Of a DNA stretch of 8,923 nucleotides, positions 1,294-8,923 are shown piece by piece. Under the pieces are notes generated by a model, which was not told the DNA's origin, did no database searches, and saw nothing but the letters and a program-made list of their open reading frames with translations. Position 1 is the first letter of the stretch. Each line of letters starts with the position of its first letter. A program made the position numbers and the translations under genes. Where the stretch lies: positions 1-8,923 of the forward strand of contig JAUXIQ010000058.1 of the NCBI GenBank assembly GCA_030620925.1, written 5' to 3'. The stretch is from JAUXIQ01 sp030620925 [NCBI: Nitrospinota bacterium]. Lineage in GTDB: Bacteria; JAUXIQ01.

Positions 1294-2181
1294 TTATAAG
1301 AAGAACTTTTCAAGAGGTTTCCTATCATGACAGCTCTGACACAGTTCCCTGGCTAAGTCTCTGGTGACCCGCCACATGTGCGGCATGTGGCAAATGGTGC
1401 AGTCGCCACCGGTGGCATCCAGGTGTATGCCGTGTTTACCAAGCTCGACGATGGAGTTGTGGCATCGTAAACAATCTGTTGAAGTTGGTTTTATGCTCTT
1501 AGAATGCGGTTTATGGCACTCCATGCAGCGGAAGGCCATGGAGCCGTTCCGGGGCCAGAAATTTGCTCCGTCAAGGCCTTGTGATCGGGCTATCTTGGCA
1601 TGACAGGAGAGACACCTTTCTCTGGTTGGTCTGAGGTCCGCTTGCTGGCCGCCGTAAGTATGGCAGCCGAGGCAGGCCATTCCTTCCATTCCCACGCCGT
1701 GCACCCTTTTTTCGATGTGGCAGTTTACGCAGAAGCGTTCTTCGGTGACGAATTTGTGGAGTTCTGTCCCGTGACACTGGGTGCATTCCAACTGAGCCAT
1801 GAACACGTGCCGGGCGTGCCCGTAGGAGCGGTTTATGGAAATGGCGGCGTCTCTGGTGAGATGGCATTCTCTGCAGATGTCTGAAGGCACGAGGAAGTGG
1901 CCGTAGCGCTCGCTCACCTCTTTGGGGTTGCTGAACAGGGTTCTTATCATCATCTTGTTCTTTTCGATGATGCTGGCTTCATGGCAGGTATGGCAGTTTA
2001 TGCCGTTGTGCACGCTCGCTTTCCAGGCATCGAAGGCTTCGTCCATGAGGTGGCAGGACCTGCAAAATTCGGGGTTGTTTTCGGTGAAATCGTAAGCATA
2101 GAAGGCTACGGTTATGGCGCCTATGACAACTATAACTCCCAGGATCACAGTTATAATCGACAGCTTGAAGGGGAATTTCAT
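1294..2181 (-). CDS. Membrane-anchored 11-heme c-type cytochrome (NapC/NirT-like N-terminus)
   Basis: This 295-residue protein has one N-terminal transmembrane anchor (about 8-29) followed by eleven CXXCH heme c motifs. They start at residues 40, 63, 103, 133, 151, 170, 190, 219, 237, 261 and 281. The anchor followed by CRSCH and CHTCH in the first 70 residues resembles the NapC/NirT quinol-dehydrogenase family. That family normally has four or five hemes, so the rest is a long multiheme extension. It should be exported, held at the outer face of the cytoplasmic membrane, and pass electrons from the quinol pool to periplasmic or extracellular acceptors. Its terminal partner cannot be read from this window. 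Additional histidines between motifs could serve as distal heme ligands. Translation starts at ATG 2181, preceded by AAGAG. The gene lies 62 bp downstream of the pseudo-receiver, probably in one operon. The heme count is read directly, and the electron-transfer role is secure. The redox partner is unknown. Confidence 0.9.
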   Translation of the reverse strand: MKFPFKLSIITVILGVIVVIGAITVAFYAYDFTENNPEFCRSCHLMDEAFDAWKASVHNGINCHTCHEASIIEKNKMMIRTLFSNPKEVSERYGHFLVPSDICRECHLTRDAAISINRSYGHARHVFMAQLECTQCHGTELHKFVTEERFCVNCHIEKRVHGVGMEGMACLGCHTYGGQQADLRPTRERCLSCHAKIARSQGLDGANFWPRNGSMAFRCMECHKPHSKSIKPTSTDCLRCHNSIVELGKHGIHLDATGGDCTICHMPHMWRVTRDLARELCQSCHDRKPLEKFFL

Positions 2182-2925: not shown

Positions 2926-4305
2926 TCATGACTCTTTGTCGATGGACGCGGTATCGGGGATGCTGTATTCTCTTAGCTTCCGGTAGAGAGTCCGCTCGCT
3001 TATGTTCAGGGCTTTGGCGGCTTTCCCCCGGTGTCCGTTCATACGCTGGAGCACCTGAATAATATATTTTTTCTCCATTTCTTTGAGGGGGAGAAGGCTT
3101 CCCGATTCATCGTTCTCACCAGCATGGGCTGCCCTCCGGATGTTTGTAGGGAGGTCTTTGGGGCTAATATAGTCGTCTTCTGACATTATGATGGCCCTTT
3201 CGATGACGTTTTGCAGCTCACGTATGTTCCCGGGCCAGGAGTAGGCCATGAGCCTTTCCATGGCCTCGTCGGTTATGGACAGGTTCTTTTTCCCCGTAAT
3301 GCTGGTATTTTCCATGAAATATTGGACGAGGAGTGGAATGTCTTCCTTCCTCTCCCGTAGCGGTGGGATGGACATGGAGAAGACGTTGAGGCGGTAAAAG
3401 AGGTCTTCCCTGAACTGGCCGTTTGACACCATCTGGTAGAGGTCTCTGTTAGTGGCGGCGATTATCCTCACTTCCACCCTGATGTCTTTGGTGCTGCCCA
3501 TGCGGCGGAAGGTCTTACTGTCCATCACCCGCAGCATCTTGGCCTGGATTGCAGGGCTGATCTCTCCTATCTCGTCCATGACCAGCGTGCCGGTATCGGC
3601 CACCTCAAAAAGGCCGTGCTTTCTGCTGGCGGCCCCTGTATAAGCGCCTTTTTCGTGTCCGAACAGCTCGTTTTCCAGCAGGTTTTCCTGCAGGGAGCCG
3701 CAGTCGATGATAACGAAGGGGCGGTCTTTCATGGGGCTATGGTGGTGGATGGCTCTGGCGACTAATTCCTTGCCCACTCCGCTCTCCCCCATGATGAGGA
3801 CAGTGGATTGGGCATTGGCCACCTTATTGATAAGCTCCAGGACGTTCTTGATTGCCTGGCTGTGGCCTATTATCCCCTGGAATTCTTCCCTGCGGGCGAG
3901 CTCCTGTTTGAGCATAATGTTCTCTTTTCCTATGAGCTGTTTTTCGTAGGCTTTGGTGATGATTGTCTCCAGCTCTGAGAGGTTGCATGGTTTGGTTATG
4001 AAGTCGTAGGCTCCCTGTTTCATGGAATTTATGGCGTTGTCCACTGTGGCGTAAGCGGTGAGCATTATTATCTCGATTTCGGGATTTATGTCTTTTATGG
4101 CTACCATCGTATCGAAGCCGCTCATTCCGGGCATCTTTATATCCAGCAATACCACGTTCAAGTTTTCTTCGGCCACCAGCTTCCGGGCCTCGTCTCCGTT
4201 GGCTGCGATGCTCACGTTGAACCCTATAGAGGCCAGCTCTTCGCTCAGCACTTCTCTGAAGGTATCGTCATCATCTACTAAAAGGACTGCGATGTCCTCT
4301 TTCAT
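2926..4305 (-). CDS. NtrC-family sigma-54-dependent response regulator
   Basis: This 459-residue protein has the standard three-domain layout. The receiver (about 1-120) has the acidic pocket Asp11-13, phospho-acceptor Asp55 (in VVLLDIKMPG), Thr83 and Lys105. The AAA+ sigma-54 interaction domain (about 143-375) has Walker A GESGVGKE at 173-180, the sigma-54 contact loop as GAYTGA at 220-225, Walker B LVMDEIGE at 241-248 and the arginine-finger region FREDLFYRL near 298-306. The C-terminal Fis-type helix-turn-helix contains GKAAKALNISERTLYRKL. The contact loop has Tyr in place of the usual Phe, a known natural variation. It starts at ATG 4305 behind GGAGG and overlaps the kinase stop by 4 bases, so the two are translationally coupled. 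It should hydrolyse ATP to remodel sigma-54 RNA polymerase. The nearest candidate target is the promoter at 2698-2713, just downstream of this gene. The family call is very secure. Confidence 0.96.
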   Translation of the reverse strand: MKEDIAVLLVDDDDTFREVLSEELASIGFNVSIAANGDEARKLVAEENLNVVLLDIKMPGMSGFDTMVAIKDINPEIEIIMLTAYATVDNAINSMKQGAYDFITKPCNLSELETIITKAYEKQLIGKENIMLKQELARREEFQGIIGHSQAIKNVLELINKVANAQSTVLIMGESGVGKELVARAIHHHSPMKDRPFVIIDCGSLQENLLENELFGHEKGAYTGAASRKHGLFEVADTGTLVMDEIGEISPAIQAKMLRVMDSKTFRRMGSTKDIRVEVRIIAATNRDLYQMVSNGQFREDLFYRLNVFSMSIPPLRERKEDIPLLVQYFMENTSITGKKNLSITDEAMERLMAYSWPGNIRELQNVIERAIIMSEDDYISPKDLPTNIRRAAHAGENDESGSLLPLKEMEKKYIIQVLQRMNGHRGKAAKALNISERTLYRKLREYSIPDTASIDKES

Positions 4306-6209
4306 ACCGCTTTTTCCTCCATGTCCGCCGGTTTTCCGGCTATCGGCAAACGCACGAAGAAATCCGTGCCCTCCCCGGGCGAGCTTTTAACGGAGACCGT
4401 TCCTCCAATTTTGTCCATCAGATTCCTGCAGATGTAGAGCCCCAGGCCTGTTCCCTTTCCGGGCGGTTTTCTGGTGAAAAAGGGTTCGAAGATTTTGCCC
4501 ATATCCTCTTTCGCTATTCCCTTGCCTGTGTCGGAGATGGTCACCTGAATCAAGTTGTCTGACATAACGGTTCGGACGGTGAGGCAACCCCCCTCGTCTT
4601 CTATGGCTTGTATTGCGTTGAGTATGAGGTTGAAAAACACCTCTCGCAGGTCCGATTGATCCAGTTGCAAGAGGGGTACGGAGGGGTCTAAATCCTTCAT
4701 TACTTCTATCTCACGGCGCGTCGATTCGGATTCCAGCAGGGAGATGGTCTCTTCCAGGCATTGGTTGACGTCCACGCTTTTTGTGGAGGGGATGGATTTT
4801 CTGGAAAGGAACAGGAGCTTATCGGTTATTATCTTACATCTTTCAGCCTCTTTTTTGGAGAGGCCCAGGTATTTATTAAATTTGTTGAGCTCTTCGGGCA
4901 CCAGGGGTGAGCTGGATTTCTTAAGCATCCGCTGAAGCCCTTCGATGCAGGTGGTTATGGACGCCAGGGGGTTCTTTATCTCGTGAGATATGCCCGAGGC
5001 AAGCAGCCCCAGGGAAGCCAGGCGCTCGGAATGGATCAGCTCCGCTTCCAGTTTTTTCCTCTCTGTGATGTCCCTTATCACTTCCACCACCTGATATACG
5101 TTTCCCGCGCTGTCCTTTATGGGAGAAGCATAGATTTCAAGCTCTATCTCTTCATCCTTTGTGTTCCGGAAGCTCCTGATGGTTTTGTGAAGGGTGCCTG
5201 TGCGGAATGTCTCTTCGGCAAGGCAGTACTGGTTGTCCGCCCCCTCTTCATTAAAGAGGGCGCCGCAGATTTTACCTACCAGTTCTTCCGTGGGACGCCC
5301 CATCAGATGCGAGACGGCATCATTTGCGGCTACTACACGATCCTCTCTGTTCACCACCAGAACCCCTTCGTCTATGCTGTTCACCAGTTTTTCCAGTTGC
5401 TCTTTCTGCAGTTTTATCTCTTTGATTTTTATGTATTCTTTCAGGTCTTCGGTCATCTGGTTGAAATTGTGGGCGAGCTGGGCCAGTTCGTCCGCCCCCC
5501 GTTCATCCACCATGGCGTCCAATTCTCCCCGGCCCACCCTGCTGGTATGTTTGAGGAAGTCGAACAGCCTGTGGATTACCAGTCTGTTCAACAGCAGCCA
5601 GAGCACGGCGGACATTACTCCGATGACTATAAGTGTCCAGAGGAGGACTTTTTTGACGTTGGCCTTTAGCGCCTGGTTTACATCGGCCATGGAGAAATCC
5701 ATCATCAGCACACCATTCAGTTTTTCAGACGCGTCGTGGCATCGATGGCATTCGGGATAGTTGAAGATGGGGTTGACGTTGCGGAAGACCTTCTCCCCGG
5801 AGGGGGTGGTATAGACGATCGTGGTGGCCCTGTTTTCCGGCTTATGTTGGTGGCAGATAAGGCAGGTGGTTTCCTCTCTGGTCATGTTTATCCCCACCAT
5901 CACAGGGTCGGAGGCGAACTTAACGGTCCCTTTCTTGTCCAGTATCATGATATTTTGGAGGCTTTCCTCCTGAGCAAGCCTACTGATAACGCCGTCTATC
6001 ATATCCAGATGATCGCCCAGCATGGCATACTGGAGACTGCTCCTTATCAGGGCGCTGACGTTTGTGGTGGAGGTTCTGAGGCTTTCTATCCACTGCTCCC
6101 GCTGATAGCGGTAGAGCAGGTAGGTGGATATACTGAGGATAATGGCCAGCGTAGCGACTATGCCTATGGTTATCTTGAAGTTCAGCCTGTCGAAAAATTT
6201 AATACCCAT
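4302..6209 (-). CDS. Membrane sensor histidine kinase with two extracytoplasmic CXXCH heme motifs (HAMP-PAS-HisKA-HATPase)
   Basis: This 635-residue protein has transmembrane segment 1 at about 13-33 and an extracytoplasmic sensor region at about 35-186 containing CLICH (116-120) and CHRCH (154-158). Transmembrane segment 2 (about 187-209) is followed by HAMP (about 210-262) and a PAS domain (about 270-385). The kinase core has the H-box SGISHEIKNP with His409, an N-box with Asn531, the G1 box DTGKGI (560-565), FEPFFT (574-579) and the G2 box GKGTGLGL (584-591). CXXCH motifs on the exported side are expected to bind heme c covalently, so it probably senses redox state, or a ligand such as NO, at the outer membrane face. 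The PAS domain has two cysteines (315 and 329) that could add redox or metal sensing. It probably phosphorylates Asp55 of the regulator that overlaps its stop codon. The start at ATG 6209 has only a weak ribosome site. Architecture is secure; the signal is inferred. Confidence 0.95.
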   Translation of the reverse strand: MGIKFFDRLNFKITIGIVATLAIILSISTYLLYRYQREQWIESLRTSTTNVSALIRSSLQYAMLGDHLDMIDGVISRLAQEESLQNIMILDKKGTVKFASDPVMVGINMTREETTCLICHQHKPENRATTIVYTTPSGEKVFRNVNPIFNYPECHRCHDASEKLNGVLMMDFSMADVNQALKANVKKVLLWTLIVIGVMSAVLWLLLNRLVIHRLFDFLKHTSRVGRGELDAMVDERGADELAQLAHNFNQMTEDLKEYIKIKEIKLQKEQLEKLVNSIDEGVLVVNREDRVVAANDAVSHLMGRPTEELVGKICGALFNEEGADNQYCLAEETFRTGTLHKTIRSFRNTKDEEIELEIYASPIKDSAGNVYQVVEVIRDITERKKLEAELIHSERLASLGLLASGISHEIKNPLASITTCIEGLQRMLKKSSSPLVPEELNKFNKYLGLSKKEAERCKIITDKLLFLSRKSIPSTKSVDVNQCLEETISLLESESTRREIEVMKDLDPSVPLLQLDQSDLREVFFNLILNAIQAIEDEGGCLTVRTVMSDNLIQVTISDTGKGIAKEDMGKIFEPFFTRKPPGKGTGLGLYICRNLMDKIGGTVSVKSSPGEGTDFFVRLPIAGKPADMEEKAV

Positions 6210-6270
6210 TGATGACCCAAGACAGAGGTTAATTGATTCTGAGGCAAAAGGGTCATTTGCGCGGCGAGTT

Positions 6271-6294
6271 AGATACTGACATATCTACATGTAG
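6271..6294. repeat. Adjacent dyads AGATA-N6-TATCT and CTACATGTAG in the kinase leader
   Basis: A perfect 5-bp inverted repeat (6271-6275 with 6282-6286) is followed directly by a perfect 10-base palindrome, CTACATGTAG (6285-6294). They lie between the candidate promoter and the kinase start, about 60-85 bases before the ATG. They could be an operator or leader-RNA structure. Short dyads also arise by chance in AT-rich DNA, so this is weak. Confidence 0.3.
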
Positions 6295-6328
6295 GGCAGG
6301 AGATAAATCGAGATATTTTGTTGTTTTC

Positions 6329-6356
6329 GTCAGATATAATGCTCGGTTGTTCTGAC
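6329..6356. repeat. Inverted repeat GTCAGA-N16-TCTGAC downstream of the kinase promoter
   Basis: Perfect 6-base arms are separated by 16 bases and lie 21-48 bases downstream of the candidate -10 element. Arms and spacing could suit a dimeric regulator site or a leader hairpin. The GTCAGA/TCTGAC arms resemble the TGTC/GACA half sites upstream of the receiver operon, so autoregulation by the encoded activator is possible but unproven. Confidence 0.35.
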
Positions 6357-6376
6357 TAAATTTCTATTCTAATAGG

Positions 6377-6406
6377 AATATATATATATCAAGTAGAAGT
6401 GTGCAA
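6377..6406 (-). promoter_or_regulatory. Candidate sigma-70 promoter for the kinase-regulator operon
   Basis: On the minus strand TTGCAC (6406-6401) is separated by 18 bases from TATATT (6382-6377). An alternative -10, TATATA, lies two bases closer. The region is AT-rich against GC-richer surroundings. Transcription would start near 6370, giving a leader of about 160 bases before the kinase ATG at 6209. The assignment is by consensus match only. Confidence 0.45.
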
Positions 6407-6453
6407 TTTTCTGCGGATAATAAAAGGGTTCTTTCAAAATTCCCTCGATTCTT

Positions 6454-6501
6454 GAAAAAATTGTGAGTGCGCCTTTTGAAACCCCGCGTTCCGCGGCGCA
6501 C
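6454..6501 (-). terminator. Candidate intrinsic terminator or structured 3' element after the lipoyl-protein operon
   Basis: Read on the minus strand, GTGCGCC (6501-6495) pairs perfectly with GGCGCAC (6473-6467) across a 21-base loop, and a run of six T follows after TCACAA. A competing tight hairpin, CCGCG-GAA-CGCGG (6496-6484), overlaps the first arm. The T-run starts six bases after the stem, later than in a classical terminator, so a different RNA structure is possible. Confidence 0.4.
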
Positions 6502-6766
6502 GCTTCCCTTTGTAGCGAGCGGTTAATAGAAATAGGGGAAAAGGTTAATATGGTAAAGTCGTGGAAAATCGTCTGTGGTGTTAGGAGCGGATTTAAGGGA
6601 GGATGTGTCTGGTCTTGACACTATTGTGGGGCACCGAAGATTTCCTTCCAATCGTACCTTTCAACTTATCGGCAGTCATAATAGATGTAAGCCCGGTACA
6701 ACTTATGGGCCGGTGCCGGCTGTTCCCGCGTGCGCCGGTATCCGATGAGCGCCAGGGGATTACGGC

Positions 6767-7228
6767 TCAATCTTCTTCCTCTTCTTCGCCCAGGAGGCCC
6801 TTCTCCCGGTATTCTTTTATCTCGTTGGTGAGCCATTCGGTTATGGCCTCGCCTCCGTGGACGCGGTCTTTCAGGTCTTCCTCAAGGTCGGTGGGCTCGA
6901 TGACAACGAACCAGCCCTGCCCGTAGGGGTCTTCGTTGACCAGCCGAGGGTTCTTGAGCACCGTGTCGTTGTGTTCGATGACCTCCCCGTTAACGGGGGC
7001 CTTGAGCGGCCCGATATATTTACCCGCCTCCAGGGAACCGAAGGCTCGGCCTTTGCGCACCGACCTGCCCACCGGCATCAGCTTGATGTAGGCCACCGTG
7101 CCCGCGGACTGTTGGCCGAACATATCCAGACCCACGCGCACGTTTCCGTTCTCGATCCTGCTCCACAGGTGCTCCTTGGGGTCGTAATAGAGGTCGTCGG
7201 GCAGCTCGTATTTTTCCACGTTAGCCAT
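6767..7228 (-). CDS. GcvH-like lipoyl-carrier protein linked to an HdrD-like reductase
   Basis: This 153-residue protein matches the glycine cleavage H protein/lipoyl-domain fold. It has an N-terminal DLYYDPKEHLWSRIENG stretch, VRVGLDMFGQ (31-40), GTVAYIKL (43-50), the lipoylation hairpin SLEAGKY with Lys70 in the ExxK position, and the closing APVNGEVIEHN. WFVVIEP (106-112) follows. The C-terminus, from about residue 113, is unusually acidic and ends in a run of glutamates. No other glycine cleavage gene (GcvT or GcvP) is present. Its ATG overlaps the end of the HdrD-like gene by 8 bases. This recalls the lipoate-binding proteins of sulfur-oxidising sHdr systems, where the lipoyl group carries sulfur intermediates. 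It probably carries a dithiol/disulfide or a C1/sulfur adduct for the neighbouring reductase. A true glycine-cleavage H protein is less likely from context. Fold and Lys70 are well supported; substrate is inferred. Confidence 0.88.
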   Translation of the reverse strand: MANVEKYELPDDLYYDPKEHLWSRIENGNVRVGLDMFGQQSAGTVAYIKLMPVGRSVRKGRAFGSLEAGKYIGPLKAPVNGEVIEHNDTVLKNPRLVNEDPYGQGWFVVIEPTDLEEDLKDRVHGGEAITEWLTNEIKEYREKGLLGEEEEED

Positions 7229-8432
7229 TTTTACGCGGGCCTCCCTTGAATATGCCCTTTTCCAGTACCAGCTCCACGATGTCTTTGATCTCCATGGCGG
7301 ACTCTTCCGTGCTGACGCTGTTAAGCAGCATCCGTTTGCACTGCTGGCAGGCGGTGACCACCATCTGCGCGCCCGTGCTCTGCACGGCGTTTAAAAGATC
7401 GCAGGCGATCTTGTTGGTTACGTCGGCGTCGATCATCTCCAGGTCGCCGCCCCCGCCGCAGCAGTAGCCGCGCTCCCTGTTCTGGGGCAGCTCCACGAAA
7501 TTTTTGGCCCCTGCTTTGATGACCTCCCTGGGAGGCTCGAAGACTTTCATGCCCCGGCCCAGGTCGCAGGGGTCGTGGTAGGTGGTAGTCTGCTCGATTT
7601 CCTTTATCTCCAGGCGGCCCTGTGTGATGAGCCGGTGTATGTACTGCGTGGAGTGAAGCAGCTCCACACCTTCCAGTTTATAGTAGTTGTTCCAGGTATA
7701 ATAGCAGGAAGGGCAGCTGAAGACCACCGTCCGTGCGCCCAGATTTTCGAGTTTCTCCAGGTTGTGTTGGCGCAAGGCCTCCGCCTCCCCTGGCAGGCCG
7801 GCGATTATGAGGGGGAACCCGCAGCACCACTCTTCTTCTCCCAGGACGGCGAAATCCTCGCCCGCCGCTTCCAGCAGACGCAGGAAAGAGGTGGGTATTT
7901 CCTGGACGGCCGGGGAGAAGGAGCCGATGCAGCCCACGAAATAGAGAACGTCGGCCCTCTCTTTCTGATAAAGGTGGTCGGGGACGTCGTCCATGAACTC
8001 CACCCACATGGCTCTCTCTTCGTTGGGGTAGTCCAGGACGTTATGCTCTTTGCGGGTAATCTCTATAACTTGATCGAGTACTGCCGGAGCGTGGCCCCGC
8101 TCCACCAGCTCATGACGCACGGAAATCCACAGGTTCCGCTGGTCGATGTTGACCGGACAGACCTGCTGACAACGCCCGCACAGAGTACATAGATAGGTGT
8201 TCTCAGACAGGGTGGTGAGTTGGGGAGACATGTCTCTATTTCTTTTCAACAGCCTGCCCAGCAGTCCTCGCTCCCTGCCTATGATCCTGCGCAGCATGCT
8301 GATCTTTTCGGCGGGAATATAGAGGTCCGCCGCTCCCTGCACGTTTATGGGGCAGGGATTCATGCACTCGCCGCATCGGGTGCAGGCGTCCAGCTCCATG
8401 AGTTGTTTAACGGAGAAGTTGGTGAGCGTCAT
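7221..8432 (-). CDS. HdrD-like heterodisulfide-reductase-related iron-sulfur protein (two 4Fe-4S, two CCG domains)
   Basis: This 403-residue protein has no signal peptide. Two ferredoxin-type 4Fe-4S motifs are complete: Cys17/20/23/27 and Cys82/85/88/92, each closing in CP. Two CCG (DUF224) domains follow. The first has Cys168, Cys203-Cys204, Cys240 and Cys243; the second has Cys289, Cys324-Cys325 in a CCGGGG stretch, Cys362 and Cys365. Spacings are those of the CX31-39CCX35-36CXXC motif, which in methanogen HdrB/HdrD binds non-cubane 4Fe-4S clusters that split disulfides. Related proteins include DsrK, HmeD and GlcF. It sits 10 bp after the b-cytochrome gene behind a good AGAGGA site, like hdrE-hdrD or dsrM-dsrK pairs, and overlaps the lipoyl-protein gene. 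It should be a cytoplasmic-side reductase exchanging electrons between the membrane subunit and a disulfide. All cluster ligands are present. The exact substrate is unknown. Confidence 0.93.
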   Translation of the reverse strand: MTLTNFSVKQLMELDACTRCGECMNPCPINVQGAADLYIPAEKISMLRRIIGRERGLLGRLLKRNRDMSPQLTTLSENTYLCTLCGRCQQVCPVNIDQRNLWISVRHELVERGHAPAVLDQVIEITRKEHNVLDYPNEERAMWVEFMDDVPDHLYQKERADVLYFVGCIGSFSPAVQEIPTSFLRLLEAAGEDFAVLGEEEWCCGFPLIIAGLPGEAEALRQHNLEKLENLGARTVVFSCPSCYYTWNNYYKLEGVELLHSTQYIHRLITQGRLEIKEIEQTTTYHDPCDLGRGMKVFEPPREVIKAGAKNFVELPQNRERGYCCGGGGDLEMIDADVTNKIACDLLNAVQSTGAQMVVTACQQCKRMLLNSVSTEESAMEIKDIVELVLEKGIFKGGPRKNG

Positions 8433-8442
8433 GAAATCCTCT

Positions 8443-8923
8443 TCAGGTCTGTCTCTGCGCGGACAGGTTGTTTATTGCAATGACCAGGGGGCTTGCGAAA
8501 AGATGTATGAACTTGCCGAAGGGTATGTATGCGATGAAAGCCAATGATGCCAGGGCATGAACGTACCACAGGGCCGTATGGGCGAAGGCCCAGTGCTCTC
8601 CGGGTGTGCCCGCCGCGGATATAAGGTGTCCCATGAAAGCGTAGCGGGTGACTTCAGGCGGTGTCCCCTCCATGAGGAAGCGGAAGCCTTCCGCCACAAA
8701 CCCGCTGATAACCACCGCCGCCAGCAGGACGACGGCCATCAGGTCTTCCGGGGTGTTCAGCAGTTGGGGGACCCTGAAGGCTGTCCGGCGAAGGACGGCT
8801 AATACCACGCCGGCTATTATCATTGACCCTAACAGGTCGAACATCAGGGCCAGGTATGGGAGGTCTTTCACGGCTTCCTCCCCCATTCCCCCGCGGATGT
8901 AGGACACTTCGATACCATCGAAT
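8443..8923 (-). CDS. NarI/HdrE/DsrM-like b-type cytochrome membrane subunit, C-terminal part (runs off right edge)
   Basis: The frame is open from the window edge for 160 codons to TGA at 8443, so the N-terminus is missing. A GTG at 8907 could be called a start, but it has no ribosome site and the frame continues upstream, so truncation by the edge is more likely. Visible hydrophobic helices include one with LMFDLLGSMIIAGVVLAVL, one with VVLLAAVVISGFVAEG, one around ALWYVHALASLAFIAYIP, and a last segment around FIHLFASPLVIAI. Histidines in FMGH, FAH, YVH and KFIH are candidates for b-heme ligands. The IAYIPFGKFIHLF ending is typical of the NarI-like domain fused to or paired with HdrD/DsrK-type proteins. 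It should link the quinone pool to the HdrD-like protein 10 bp downstream. Whether other domains precede it cannot be seen. Confidence 0.88.
   Translation of the reverse strand, partial: FDGIEVSYIRGGMGEEAVKDLPYLALMFDLLGSMIIAGVVLAVLRRTAFRVPQLLNTPEDLMAVVLLAAVVISGFVAEGFRFLMEGTPPEVTRYAFMGHLISAAGTPGEHWAFAHTALWYVHALASLAFIAYIPFGKFIHLFASPLVIAINNLSAQRQT

What the first reader, a model, noticed from the sequence alone, without database searches (positions are those of the whole stretch)
6767..8923. Membrane b-cytochrome + HdrD-like reductase + dedicated lipoyl-carrier protein: a possible quinone-linked lipoyl-disulfide oxidoreductase
Three overlapping or nearly abutting genes encode a NarI/HdrE-like membrane subunit, an HdrD-like protein with all non-cubane cluster ligands, and a GcvH-like protein with its lipoyl lysine (Lys70) but no glycine cleavage partners. 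CCG domains act on disulfides, and an oxidised lipoyl arm is a disulfide. The 8-bp overlap suggests matched expression. Known sHdr/LbpA systems use soluble HdrA/B/C subunits, whereas here a membrane cytochrome pairs directly with HdrD and the carrier. The specific coupling is my inference.
Basis: partly seen in the sequence, partly recalled or inferred. Interest (0 to 1): 0.62.

Follow-up and report, generated by a model that had tools for sequence, protein, structure and literature searches.

The report
Lipoyl carrier for membrane disulfide oxidoreductase
Three adjacent genes encode a membrane cytochrome, an iron-sulfur enzyme of the kind that acts on sulfur-sulfur bonds, and a small protein that probably carries a lipoyl arm; related gene sets recur in many sulfate-reducing bacteria, which suggests an overlooked way to pass electrons, and perhaps sulfur, between lipoyl proteins and the respiratory chain.

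Summary
The triplet is real: NarI-like cytochrome b (cut by the contig end), HdrD-like protein with all ten CCG cysteines, GcvH-like protein with Lys70; HdrD and GcvH genes overlap by 8 bp. The genome has a separate glycine-cleavage operon with its own GcvH. The closest relatives of both HdrD and GcvH lie together in four Desulfobacteraceae MAGs, where NarI and HdrD are fused and followed by TusA, the GcvH-like gene, DsrE/F/H-like genes and lipoate-assembly genes. Another contig of the window's genome carries DsrH-TusA-LplA-LipT. Of 32 related HdrDs, 30 have a GcvH-like gene within 2.5 kb (31 counting one slightly farther); the exception lies at a contig start. A neighbouring HdrD clade has 0 of 13. 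ETF-linked NarI-HdrD enzymes form another clade and lack one of the ten cysteines. The GcvH-like protein lacks the two cysteines that mark sHdr LbpA; it falls outside glycine-cleavage GcvHs in the best tree, but topology tests are inconclusive. Best reading: a membrane HdrD-cytochrome b module exchanging electrons between a lipoyl protein and menaquinone, here probably serving sulfane-sulfur oxidation. The association is strong; chemistry and direction are untested. New variant of a known kind.

The parts
8443..8922 (-). NarI/HdrE-like membrane cytochrome b subunit, C-terminal 159 residues only; 5' end lies beyond the contig
   Evidence: Pfam Nitrate_red_gam 8.8e-9; His pair 18 columns apart conserved in 13 of 13 aligned NarI-like proteins; no CxxCH in the visible part
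7221..8432 (-). HdrD-like iron-sulfur protein, 403 aa: two ferredoxin-type 4Fe-4S sites and two complete five-cysteine CCG sites
   Evidence: Pfam CCG and Fer4_8; cysteines C17 C20 C23 C27, C82 C85 C88 C92, C168 C203 C204 C240 C243, C289 C324 C325 C362 C365; grouped with Desulfobacteraceae NarI-HdrD fusions, support 98/93 and 99/96
6767..7228 (-). GcvH-like (lipoyl-carrier) protein, 153 aa, without cysteine
   Evidence: Pfam GCV_H 1e-30; NCBIfam GcvH models 109.6 and 87.7 bits, below their cut-offs of 117 and 115.85; grouped with four Desulfobacteraceae proteins, support 100/99
7019..7021 (-). codon of Lys70, the predicted lipoyl attachment site
   Evidence: motif LEAGK70YIGPL; K in 47 of 48 Hdr-linked rows; position computed from the gene start at 7228

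Best explanation
The genes encode a membrane-anchored oxidoreductase built like HdrDE or DsrMK (NarI-type cytochrome b plus HdrD-type CCG/4Fe-4S subunit) together with its own mobile dithiol carrier, a GcvH-like protein lipoylated on Lys70. The lipoyl arm presents its dithiol, disulfide or persulfide to the non-cubane clusters of HdrD, and electrons pass through the cubane clusters and haem b to or from menaquinone. In this genome the substrate side is most likely sulfane sulfur delivered by TusA/DsrEFH-type transferases, and oxidation (lipoyl side to quinone) is the more likely direction, because dihydrolipoyl (about -0.29 V, as given in PMC6067878) is lower than menaquinone (about -0.07 V, recalled). 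Shown: gene order, motifs, phylogeny, conserved linkage, presence of sulfur-transfer and lipoate-assembly genes in relatives and, in part and on another contig, in this genome. Inferred: lipoylation, HdrD-carrier contact, substrate, direction, quinone type.
For: 30 of 32 related HdrDs have a GcvH-like gene within 2.5 kb, 31 of 32 in the locus and on the same strand, against 0 of 13 within 2.5 kb in a neighbouring clade. Window HdrD and GcvH have the same nearest relatives (98/93 and 100/99), in loci with TusA, DsrE/F/H-like, LplA, LipS2, LipT-like and LipS1 genes. Own-genome contig C16 has DsrH end-TusA-LplA/DUF116-LipT-like. Both CCG sites are complete in 5 of 5 window-plus-fusion and 27 of 27 other GcvH-linked HdrDs of this group, but in 0 of 9 ETF-linked relatives. 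NarI-GcvH-HdrD sets with no FAD oxidase gene between or beside them in L157, L192, L193, L195, L198. LbpA of the sHdr pathway is an experimentally shown precedent for a lipoyl protein working with Hdr-like CCG proteins (PMC6067878).
Against: No biochemistry. NarI is truncated. In G000 the TusA/DsrH/LplA/LipT genes lie on a different contig, so their link to the triplet is by analogy; the only DsrE-family (PF02635) genes found in G000 are a different pair on C357, LipS2 gave only a weak match of 4.2e-4, DsrA none; DsrF and LipS1 were not searched genome-wide there. 28 of the 32 HdrD loci, the window's own among them, show no TusA/DsrE in the stretch held, and 15 of the 27 standalone ones have a GlcD-type FAD oxidase beside them, so the substrate may differ between branches. 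A NarI-type gene was seen in the stretch for 21 of 32; several of the other 11 are cut by contig ends, but L169 has about 2 kb upstream of GlcD without one. Whether the GcvH linkage arose once is unresolved: the 32 rows join at 88 in the quick tree but not in the careful ones. The window protein lacks the two cysteines of LbpA. Complete CCG sites are not specific to GcvH-linked HdrDs (12 of 13 unlinked ones have them). LipS1/LipS2 are not restricted to sulfur oxidisers (PMC10332631 passage).
Confidence: 0.6

Rival explanations
1. The lipoyl carrier is an electron shuttle between a soluble dehydrogenase (GlcD FAD oxidase plus its own CCG subunit) and the membrane NarI-HdrD; the system oxidises an organic hydroxy acid, and sulfur is a side case.
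For: In many Desulfobacterota loci the order is multihaem cytochrome c/NarI - GlcD - GlcF-type HdrD-a - GcvH-like - HdrD-b, with a CCG protein on either side of the carrier; 15 of 27 standalone HdrD-b loci of the group have GlcD beside them.
Against: The window's closest relatives (L051-L054) have TusA/DsrE/F/H in that place and no GlcD was recognised among the genes named there; NarI-GcvH-HdrD sets without GlcD exist. What lies upstream of the window's NarI is unknown.
Confidence: 0.2
2. NarI-HdrD is an ETF:menaquinone oxidoreductase (EtfD/EMO) and the GcvH-like gene is an unrelated neighbour.
For: Same overall plan; the only PDB sequence matching the window HdrD at 0.001 is the 1042-aa iron-sulfur-binding reductase 9ojn (2.2e-38), whose length fits EtfD of PMC13083937 (the link between entry and paper is my inference).
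Against: Nine NarI-HdrD proteins that I took, 8 of 9 with an ETF subunit as the neighbour scanned, form a separate clade, 100/100, and 0 of 9 keep all ten CCG cysteines; none of the eight window proteins scanned is an ETF subunit; the GcvH linkage is conserved.
Confidence: 0.07
3. The GcvH-like protein is a second glycine-cleavage or lipoyl-relay H protein that happens to sit beside the Hdr genes.
For: Same Pfam family; a topology joining it to GCS GcvHs is not rejected (p 0.088; p 0.66); all nine other GcvH-like proteins scanned, Hdr- or LipS-linked ones from other branches, pass at least one NCBI GcvH cut-off.
Against: The genome has a separate GCS operon whose GcvH scores 173.8 and 161 bits, against 109.6 and 87.7 for the window protein; conserved Hdr linkage on one strand.
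Confidence: 0.08
4. The complex runs in reverse: menaquinol reduces a lipoyl disulfide or lipoyl-bound sulfur, as DsrMK is thought to do with DsrC (recalled).
For: DsrMK and HdrDE have the same plan (recalled); Desulfobacteraceae relatives G061 and G062 carry DsrA over the cut-off.
Against: Potentials favour oxidation of the dithiol; G000 and G060 have no detected DsrA and G059 a partial one.
Confidence: 0.12

Closest known systems
sHdr-LbpA sulfur-oxidising system (Hyphomicrobium and others; PMC6067878, PMC10332631)
   Same: GcvH-like lipoyl carrier working with CCG proteins, plus LplA/LipS1/LipS2/LipT assembly genes and TusA/DsrE-type transferases in relatives
   Different: no sHdrABC set was seen at the locus; a membrane NarI-HdrD is there instead; the carrier lacks the two cysteines that mark LbpA
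HdrDE of methanogens (recalled)
   Same: b-type cytochrome plus HdrD with two complete CCG sites
   Different: bacterial; a protein-bound lipoyl arm instead of CoM-S-S-CoB (inferred)
DsrMK with DsrC (recalled)
   Same: NarI-like membrane subunit, HdrD-like subunit and a small mobile dithiol protein
   Different: HdrD scores 106.1 bits against the DsrK cut-off of 400; the carrier is GcvH-like, not DsrC
EtfD/EMO ETF:menaquinone oxidoreductase (PMC13083937; entry 9ojn matched)
   Same: membrane NarI-type domain plus HdrD-type domain
   Different: separate clade, ETF neighbours in 8 of 9, one CCG cysteine (C240 position) missing in 9 of 9
TusA-DsrEFH type II (YTD) clusters of sulfate reducers (PMC13293266, PMC12998232)
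   Same: TusA followed, after the GcvH-like gene, by DsrE/F/H-like genes in the Desulfobacteraceae relatives
   Different: PMC13293266 holds none of the terms GcvH, lipo-, HdrD, NarI and PMC12998232 none of GcvH, glycine cleavage, HdrD in the main text; type II membership of these DsrEFH was not tested here

Membership tests
LbpA of the sHdr pathway | conserved lipoyl lysine | tested here: met
   Lys70 aligns with the lipoyl lysine
LbpA of the sHdr pathway | two conserved cysteines near the N and C termini (PMC6067878; some archaeal LbpAs excepted) | tested here: not met
   no cysteine in the window protein or its four closest relatives; present in L034 (two proteins), L035, L171
LbpA of the sHdr pathway | encoded with soluble sHdrA/B/C genes | tested here: inconclusive
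   none in the window; other CCG proteins of G000 lie on C194, C117 and C217 and are not an sHdr set as far as read by eye; contigs are short and C217 is cut
GcvH of the glycine cleavage system | encoded with gcvT/gcvP | tested here: not met
   no such genes in the window; they lie on C83 with another GcvH
GcvH of the glycine cleavage system | NCBIfam GcvH cut-offs (117 and 115.85 bits) | tested here: not met
   109.6 and 87.7 bits
GcvH of the glycine cleavage system | groups inside GCS GcvHs in a tree | tested here: inconclusive
   outside, 97/94, but AU p 0.088 and p 0.66 on the quick tree
HdrDE | HdrD with two complete CCG sites and two 4Fe-4S sites | tested here: met
   18 of 18 cysteines
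HdrDE | HdrE-type b cytochrome | tested here: inconclusive
   C-terminal 159 aa with conserved His pair; N-terminal part beyond the contig
HdrDE | reduces CoM-S-S-CoB | not testable with these tools
   needs enzyme assay
EtfD/EMO | clade membership and ETF neighbours | tested here: not met
   separate clade; none of the eight window proteins scanned is an ETF subunit
DsrMK | DsrK model cut-off | tested here: not met
   106.1 of 400 bits
TmcB/HmcF | model cut-offs | tested here: not met
   102.6 of 735 and 86.8 of 750 bits

The most novel reading that the evidence does not exclude
A lipoylated protein serves as the bacterial counterpart of CoM/CoB or DsrC: a dedicated, protein-bound dithiol that links several front ends (TusA/DsrEFH sulfur transfer in one branch, GlcD-type dehydrogenases in another) to a membrane HdrD-cytochrome complex and the quinone or periplasmic cytochrome pool, widely used by sulfate-reducing bacteria and not described in the papers searched.
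Probability: 0.4. Interest if true: 0.82.

Novelty: new variant of a known kind. Interest (0 to 1): 0.63.

Why it matters
Lipoate has few known roles. The discovery of LbpA (PMC6067878, 2018) added sulfur oxidation by Hdr-like complexes. A membrane HdrD with its own lipoyl carrier would tie lipoyl chemistry directly to quinone respiration, would give many Desulfobacterota genomes a testable electron or sulfur entry point, and bears on the open question of how sulfate reducers with TusA/DsrEFH-type genes oxidise sulfur. Relatives occur in a phylum with cultured members, so a deletion test may be possible.

Tried and rejected
Structure prediction of the GcvH-like protein from a four-row alignment gave mean pLDDT 55.3 with a poor lysine region; not used, and the HdrD-carrier complex could not be modelled with these tools. 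Rfam found nothing in the window. Plasmid tblastn with HdrD gave 92 records, all under 60% identity. The first set of GcvH neighbourhoods from other phyla (L033-L048, 16 stretches) had no HdrD or NarI hit at 1e-4, so a GcvH neighbourhood as such does not bring HdrD. Trees of LplA and LipT did not place the C16 proteins firmly (the L069-L071 copies were not in that tree). The idea that the window's cytochrome with 11 CxxCH (1294-2181) corresponds to the haem domain of the NarI fusions found only weak, repeat-type similarity. Sigma-70 and terminator scans of 6200-6800 gave no more than shuffles. Literature searches that did not turn up this combination; open-licence papers only. Selection: the 36 HdrD loci L154-L169 and L179-L198 were taken by me from the upper part of the HdrD-only rows, not all of them; 25 of 36 had a GcvH-like gene within 2.5 kb. 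The nine ETF-type proteins were also my choice from that list. HdrD hits under 250 aa were left out of the trees. In the smaller trees near-duplicates and some long-branch rows were dropped by hand; the quick trees hold them, save three GcvH rows (L155, L007, L026) left out.
Full report
OBSERVATION. The window is the whole of contig C404 (8923 bp) of a 2.5-Mb, 445-contig genome, about 89% complete, the only member of its phylum among the genomes held. On the minus strand lie a NarI-like protein (8443-8922, open at the contig end), an HdrD-like protein (7221-8432) and a GcvH-like protein (6767-7228). Gap and overlap are 10 bp and 8 bp. Pfam matches are Nitrate_red_gam, CCG (two stretches) plus Fer4_8, and GCV_H. 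HdrD has 18 of 18 expected cysteines: two ferredoxin-type sites and two five-cysteine CCG sites. NarI keeps a His pair 18 columns apart, conserved in all 13 NarI-like proteins aligned. That this corresponds to haem b ligands of NarI is recalled.

THE GENOME HAS ITS OWN GLYCINE CLEAVAGE SYSTEM. Contig C83 carries gcvT, gcvH, gcvPA, gcvPB and an LplA-like gene. That GcvH scores 173.8 and 161 bits on the NCBI GcvH models; the window protein scores 109.6 and 87.7, under both cut-offs. So the window protein is an additional, divergent H protein.

CLOSEST RELATIVES. A pattern-based scan of genome contigs (84,980 species) with the window HdrD found five loci; four are Desulfobacteraceae MAGs with 45-47% identity (the fifth, from a Dehalococcoidia MAG, has 29%). 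In all four NarI and HdrD are one protein (two copies complete, 706 and 708 aa; two cut by contig ends). They are followed on the same strand by TusA, a GcvH-like gene (52-54% identical to the window's in the three aligned; the L052 copy was found later), DsrE/DsrF/DsrH-like genes and an LplA-like gene. Where the contig goes on there are two small proteins without a family, a second GcvH-like gene, LipS2, LplA with DUF116, a LipT-like flavoprotein and LipS1, and an HdrB-like gene in one of them (LipS1 and LipS2 score just under their NCBI cut-offs). A similar block, DsrH end - TusA - LplA/DUF116 - LipT-like, occurs in the window's genome on contig C16 (L077), 46-49% identical to the Desulfobacteraceae TusA, DsrH and LplA and 38% for LipT. 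In G000 the DsrE-family search found only another pair, on C357, and the LipS2 search only a weak match of 4.2e-4; DsrF and LipS1 were not searched genome-wide. The assembly is fragmented.

WIDER CONSERVATION. In 85 genomes of the order of the relative G061, 77 have a match to the fusion at 1e-60 or better, most to other NarI- or HdrD-type proteins. I fetched 36 standalone HdrD loci from the upper part of that list; 25 of 36 have a GcvH-like gene within 2.5 kb. The common order is multihaem cytochrome c/NarI - GlcD - GlcF-type HdrD-a - GcvH-like - HdrD-b, in some loci followed by LplA, LipT, LipS1 and LipS2. The NarI fusions have 11 CxxCH in L145, L154, L157, L185 and L193, and 6 in L195 and L198. 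Five loci (L157, L192, L193, L195, L198) have NarI - GcvH - HdrD with no GlcD between or beside them (L157 has GlcD genes over 10 kb away, and L192 is cut within NarI). A strict search with the four-row GcvH profile gave 17 of 395 genomes of that phylum at 1e-35, of which only G061 is close (3e-88; the others 2e-43 to 8e-36), and 4 of 386 genomes from elsewhere at 1e-33, the window's own included. Around those 17, an HdrD-type gene was found in 11, HdrB/HdrC-type genes alone in 1, NarI alone in 1, and only lipoate-assembly genes in 4.

PHYLOGENY. HdrD: the window falls with the four fusions (97 quick, 98/93 and 99/96 careful), though its branch is long and treekit warns of long branches meeting. 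In the quick tree these join the GcvH-linked HdrD-b proteins at 88. Of these 32, 30 have a GcvH-like gene within 2.5 kb. L145 has one 1962 bp away with an AMP-ligase-like gene between, and L179's contig starts 212 bp upstream of HdrD; so 31 of 32 have one in the locus, all on the same strand, gaps otherwise -5 to 393 bp. A NarI-type gene was seen in 21 of 32 stretches. A neighbouring HdrD clade has 0 of 13 within 2.5 kb; three of those 13 (in L154, L155, L157) share a stretch, at 2.7 kb or more, with a GcvH-like gene that adjoins another HdrD. Fisher p is 1.4e-9 for 30/32 against 0/13, without correction for relatedness; on the careful tree the label needs 3 changes against 11.9 in shuffles. 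The careful trees do not settle whether the linkage arose once. Nine ETF-type NarI-HdrD enzymes (an ETF subunit in the neighbour scanned for 8 of 9) are a separate clade, 100/100.

GcvH: the careful tree puts the window with the four Desulfobacteraceae proteins (100/99) and splits 21 context-defined GCS GcvHs (with 5 of unknown context and, against the pattern, 2 of the second GcvH-like type of the Desulfobacteraceae loci) from 39 Hdr-, NarI- or LipS-linked or LbpA-type proteins (97/94). The proteins with the two LbpA cysteines are a weak sister of the window family (88/58). AU tests do not reject the window family joining GCS GcvHs (p 0.088; p 0.66 on the quick tree, where the joined tree scored 10.4 log units better), nor joining the HdrD-b-linked carriers (p 0.146). 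Deep placement is open.

DISULFIDE CHEMISTRY. PMC13083937 (passages read) reports that in Hdr two solvent-accessible non-cubane clusters cleave the heterodisulfide, while in mycobacterial EtfD one cluster is non-catalytic and the other lacks an Hdr cysteine. Here 0 of 9 ETF-type Desulfobacterota proteins keep all ten CCG cysteines (the one at the C240 position is missing in all nine, apparently not the position reported for EtfD), whereas 5 of 5 window-plus-fusion, 27 of 27 GcvH-linked HdrD-b, 10 of 10 other GcvH-locus HdrDs and 15 of 16 HdrD-a proteins do. This fits disulfide or persulfide chemistry, but 12 of 13 unlinked HdrDs keep them too, so it does not prove the lipoyl partner.

MECHANISM. 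The plan - NarI-type cytochrome b, HdrD, small mobile dithiol carrier - is that of DsrMK-DsrC and HdrDE-CoM/CoB (recalled). A lipoyl protein as partner of CCG proteins has a precedent in LbpA of sHdr (PMC6067878: abstract, section 6, first part of section 13. PMC10332631: passages). In loci with two CCG proteins flanking the carrier gene, the carrier could shuttle between a soluble dehydrogenase and the membrane complex; in the window's branch TusA/DsrEFH-type proteins would be the source, giving sulfane-sulfur oxidation to the quinone pool. Against a sulfur role in general: 28 of the 32 loci show no TusA/DsrE in the stretch held, 15 of the 27 standalone ones have GlcD, and LipS1/LipS2 also occur outside sulfur oxidisers. 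Lipoylation, contact, substrate and direction are inferred.

LITERATURE. PMC13293266 (abstract, sections 14 and 15, passages) characterises DsrEFH type II with TusA, widespread in sulfate reducers, and PMC12998232 (passages) the YTD cluster; the terms GcvH and HdrD occur in neither main text. Searches listed no paper that I recognised as being about a membrane NarI-HdrD with a GcvH-like partner; only open-licence papers were searched.

VERDICT. New variant of a known kind.

Noticed in passing
window 4302-6209 (-): The histidine kinase beside the triplet has two CxxCH motifs (residues 116 and 154) in its sensor part, suggesting a haem c redox sensor; it overlaps an NtrC-type regulator gene.
   Followed up: partly
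window 1294-2181 (-): A 295-aa cytochrome c with 11 CxxCH motifs and a NapC/NirT-type match; weak similarity to the haem domain of the NarI fusions.
   Followed up: partly
L154-L198 (Desulfobacterota): A recurring operon: multihaem cytochrome c fused to NarI, GlcD, two CCG proteins and a GcvH-like protein, in some loci with lipoate assembly genes.
   Followed up: partly
GcvH-like proteins of L154-L198: The 24 full-length copies of this branch each carry a single cysteine at about residue 99 that the window protein lacks.
   Followed up: no
L051-L053 and L070, fused NarI-HdrD: The Desulfobacteraceae fusion has a CxxCH motif in the NarI part, perhaps a covalent haem; the visible window NarI has none.
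   Followed up: partly
L069 4761-5401; L071 9578-10334: Two conserved small proteins (about 107 and 110 aa) without a Pfam or NCBIfam match sit in the sulfur/lipoate cluster.
   Followed up: no
L135, L139, L141, L145, L146, L148: GcvH-like genes lie near AMP-forming acyl-CoA ligase-like genes in several Desulfobacterota loci (named by eye).
   Followed up: no
L066 (G000 contig C357): DsrE-family genes beside genes that look like MoeB/ThiF, ThiS-type and cysteine synthase (by eye): perhaps a separate sulfur-carrier system.
   Followed up: no
L206 (G000 contig C117) 2092-5640: HdrB-like protein beside what look like succinate dehydrogenase/fumarate reductase iron-sulfur and flavoprotein genes, resembling the SdhE-anchored type (by eye).
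   Followed up: no
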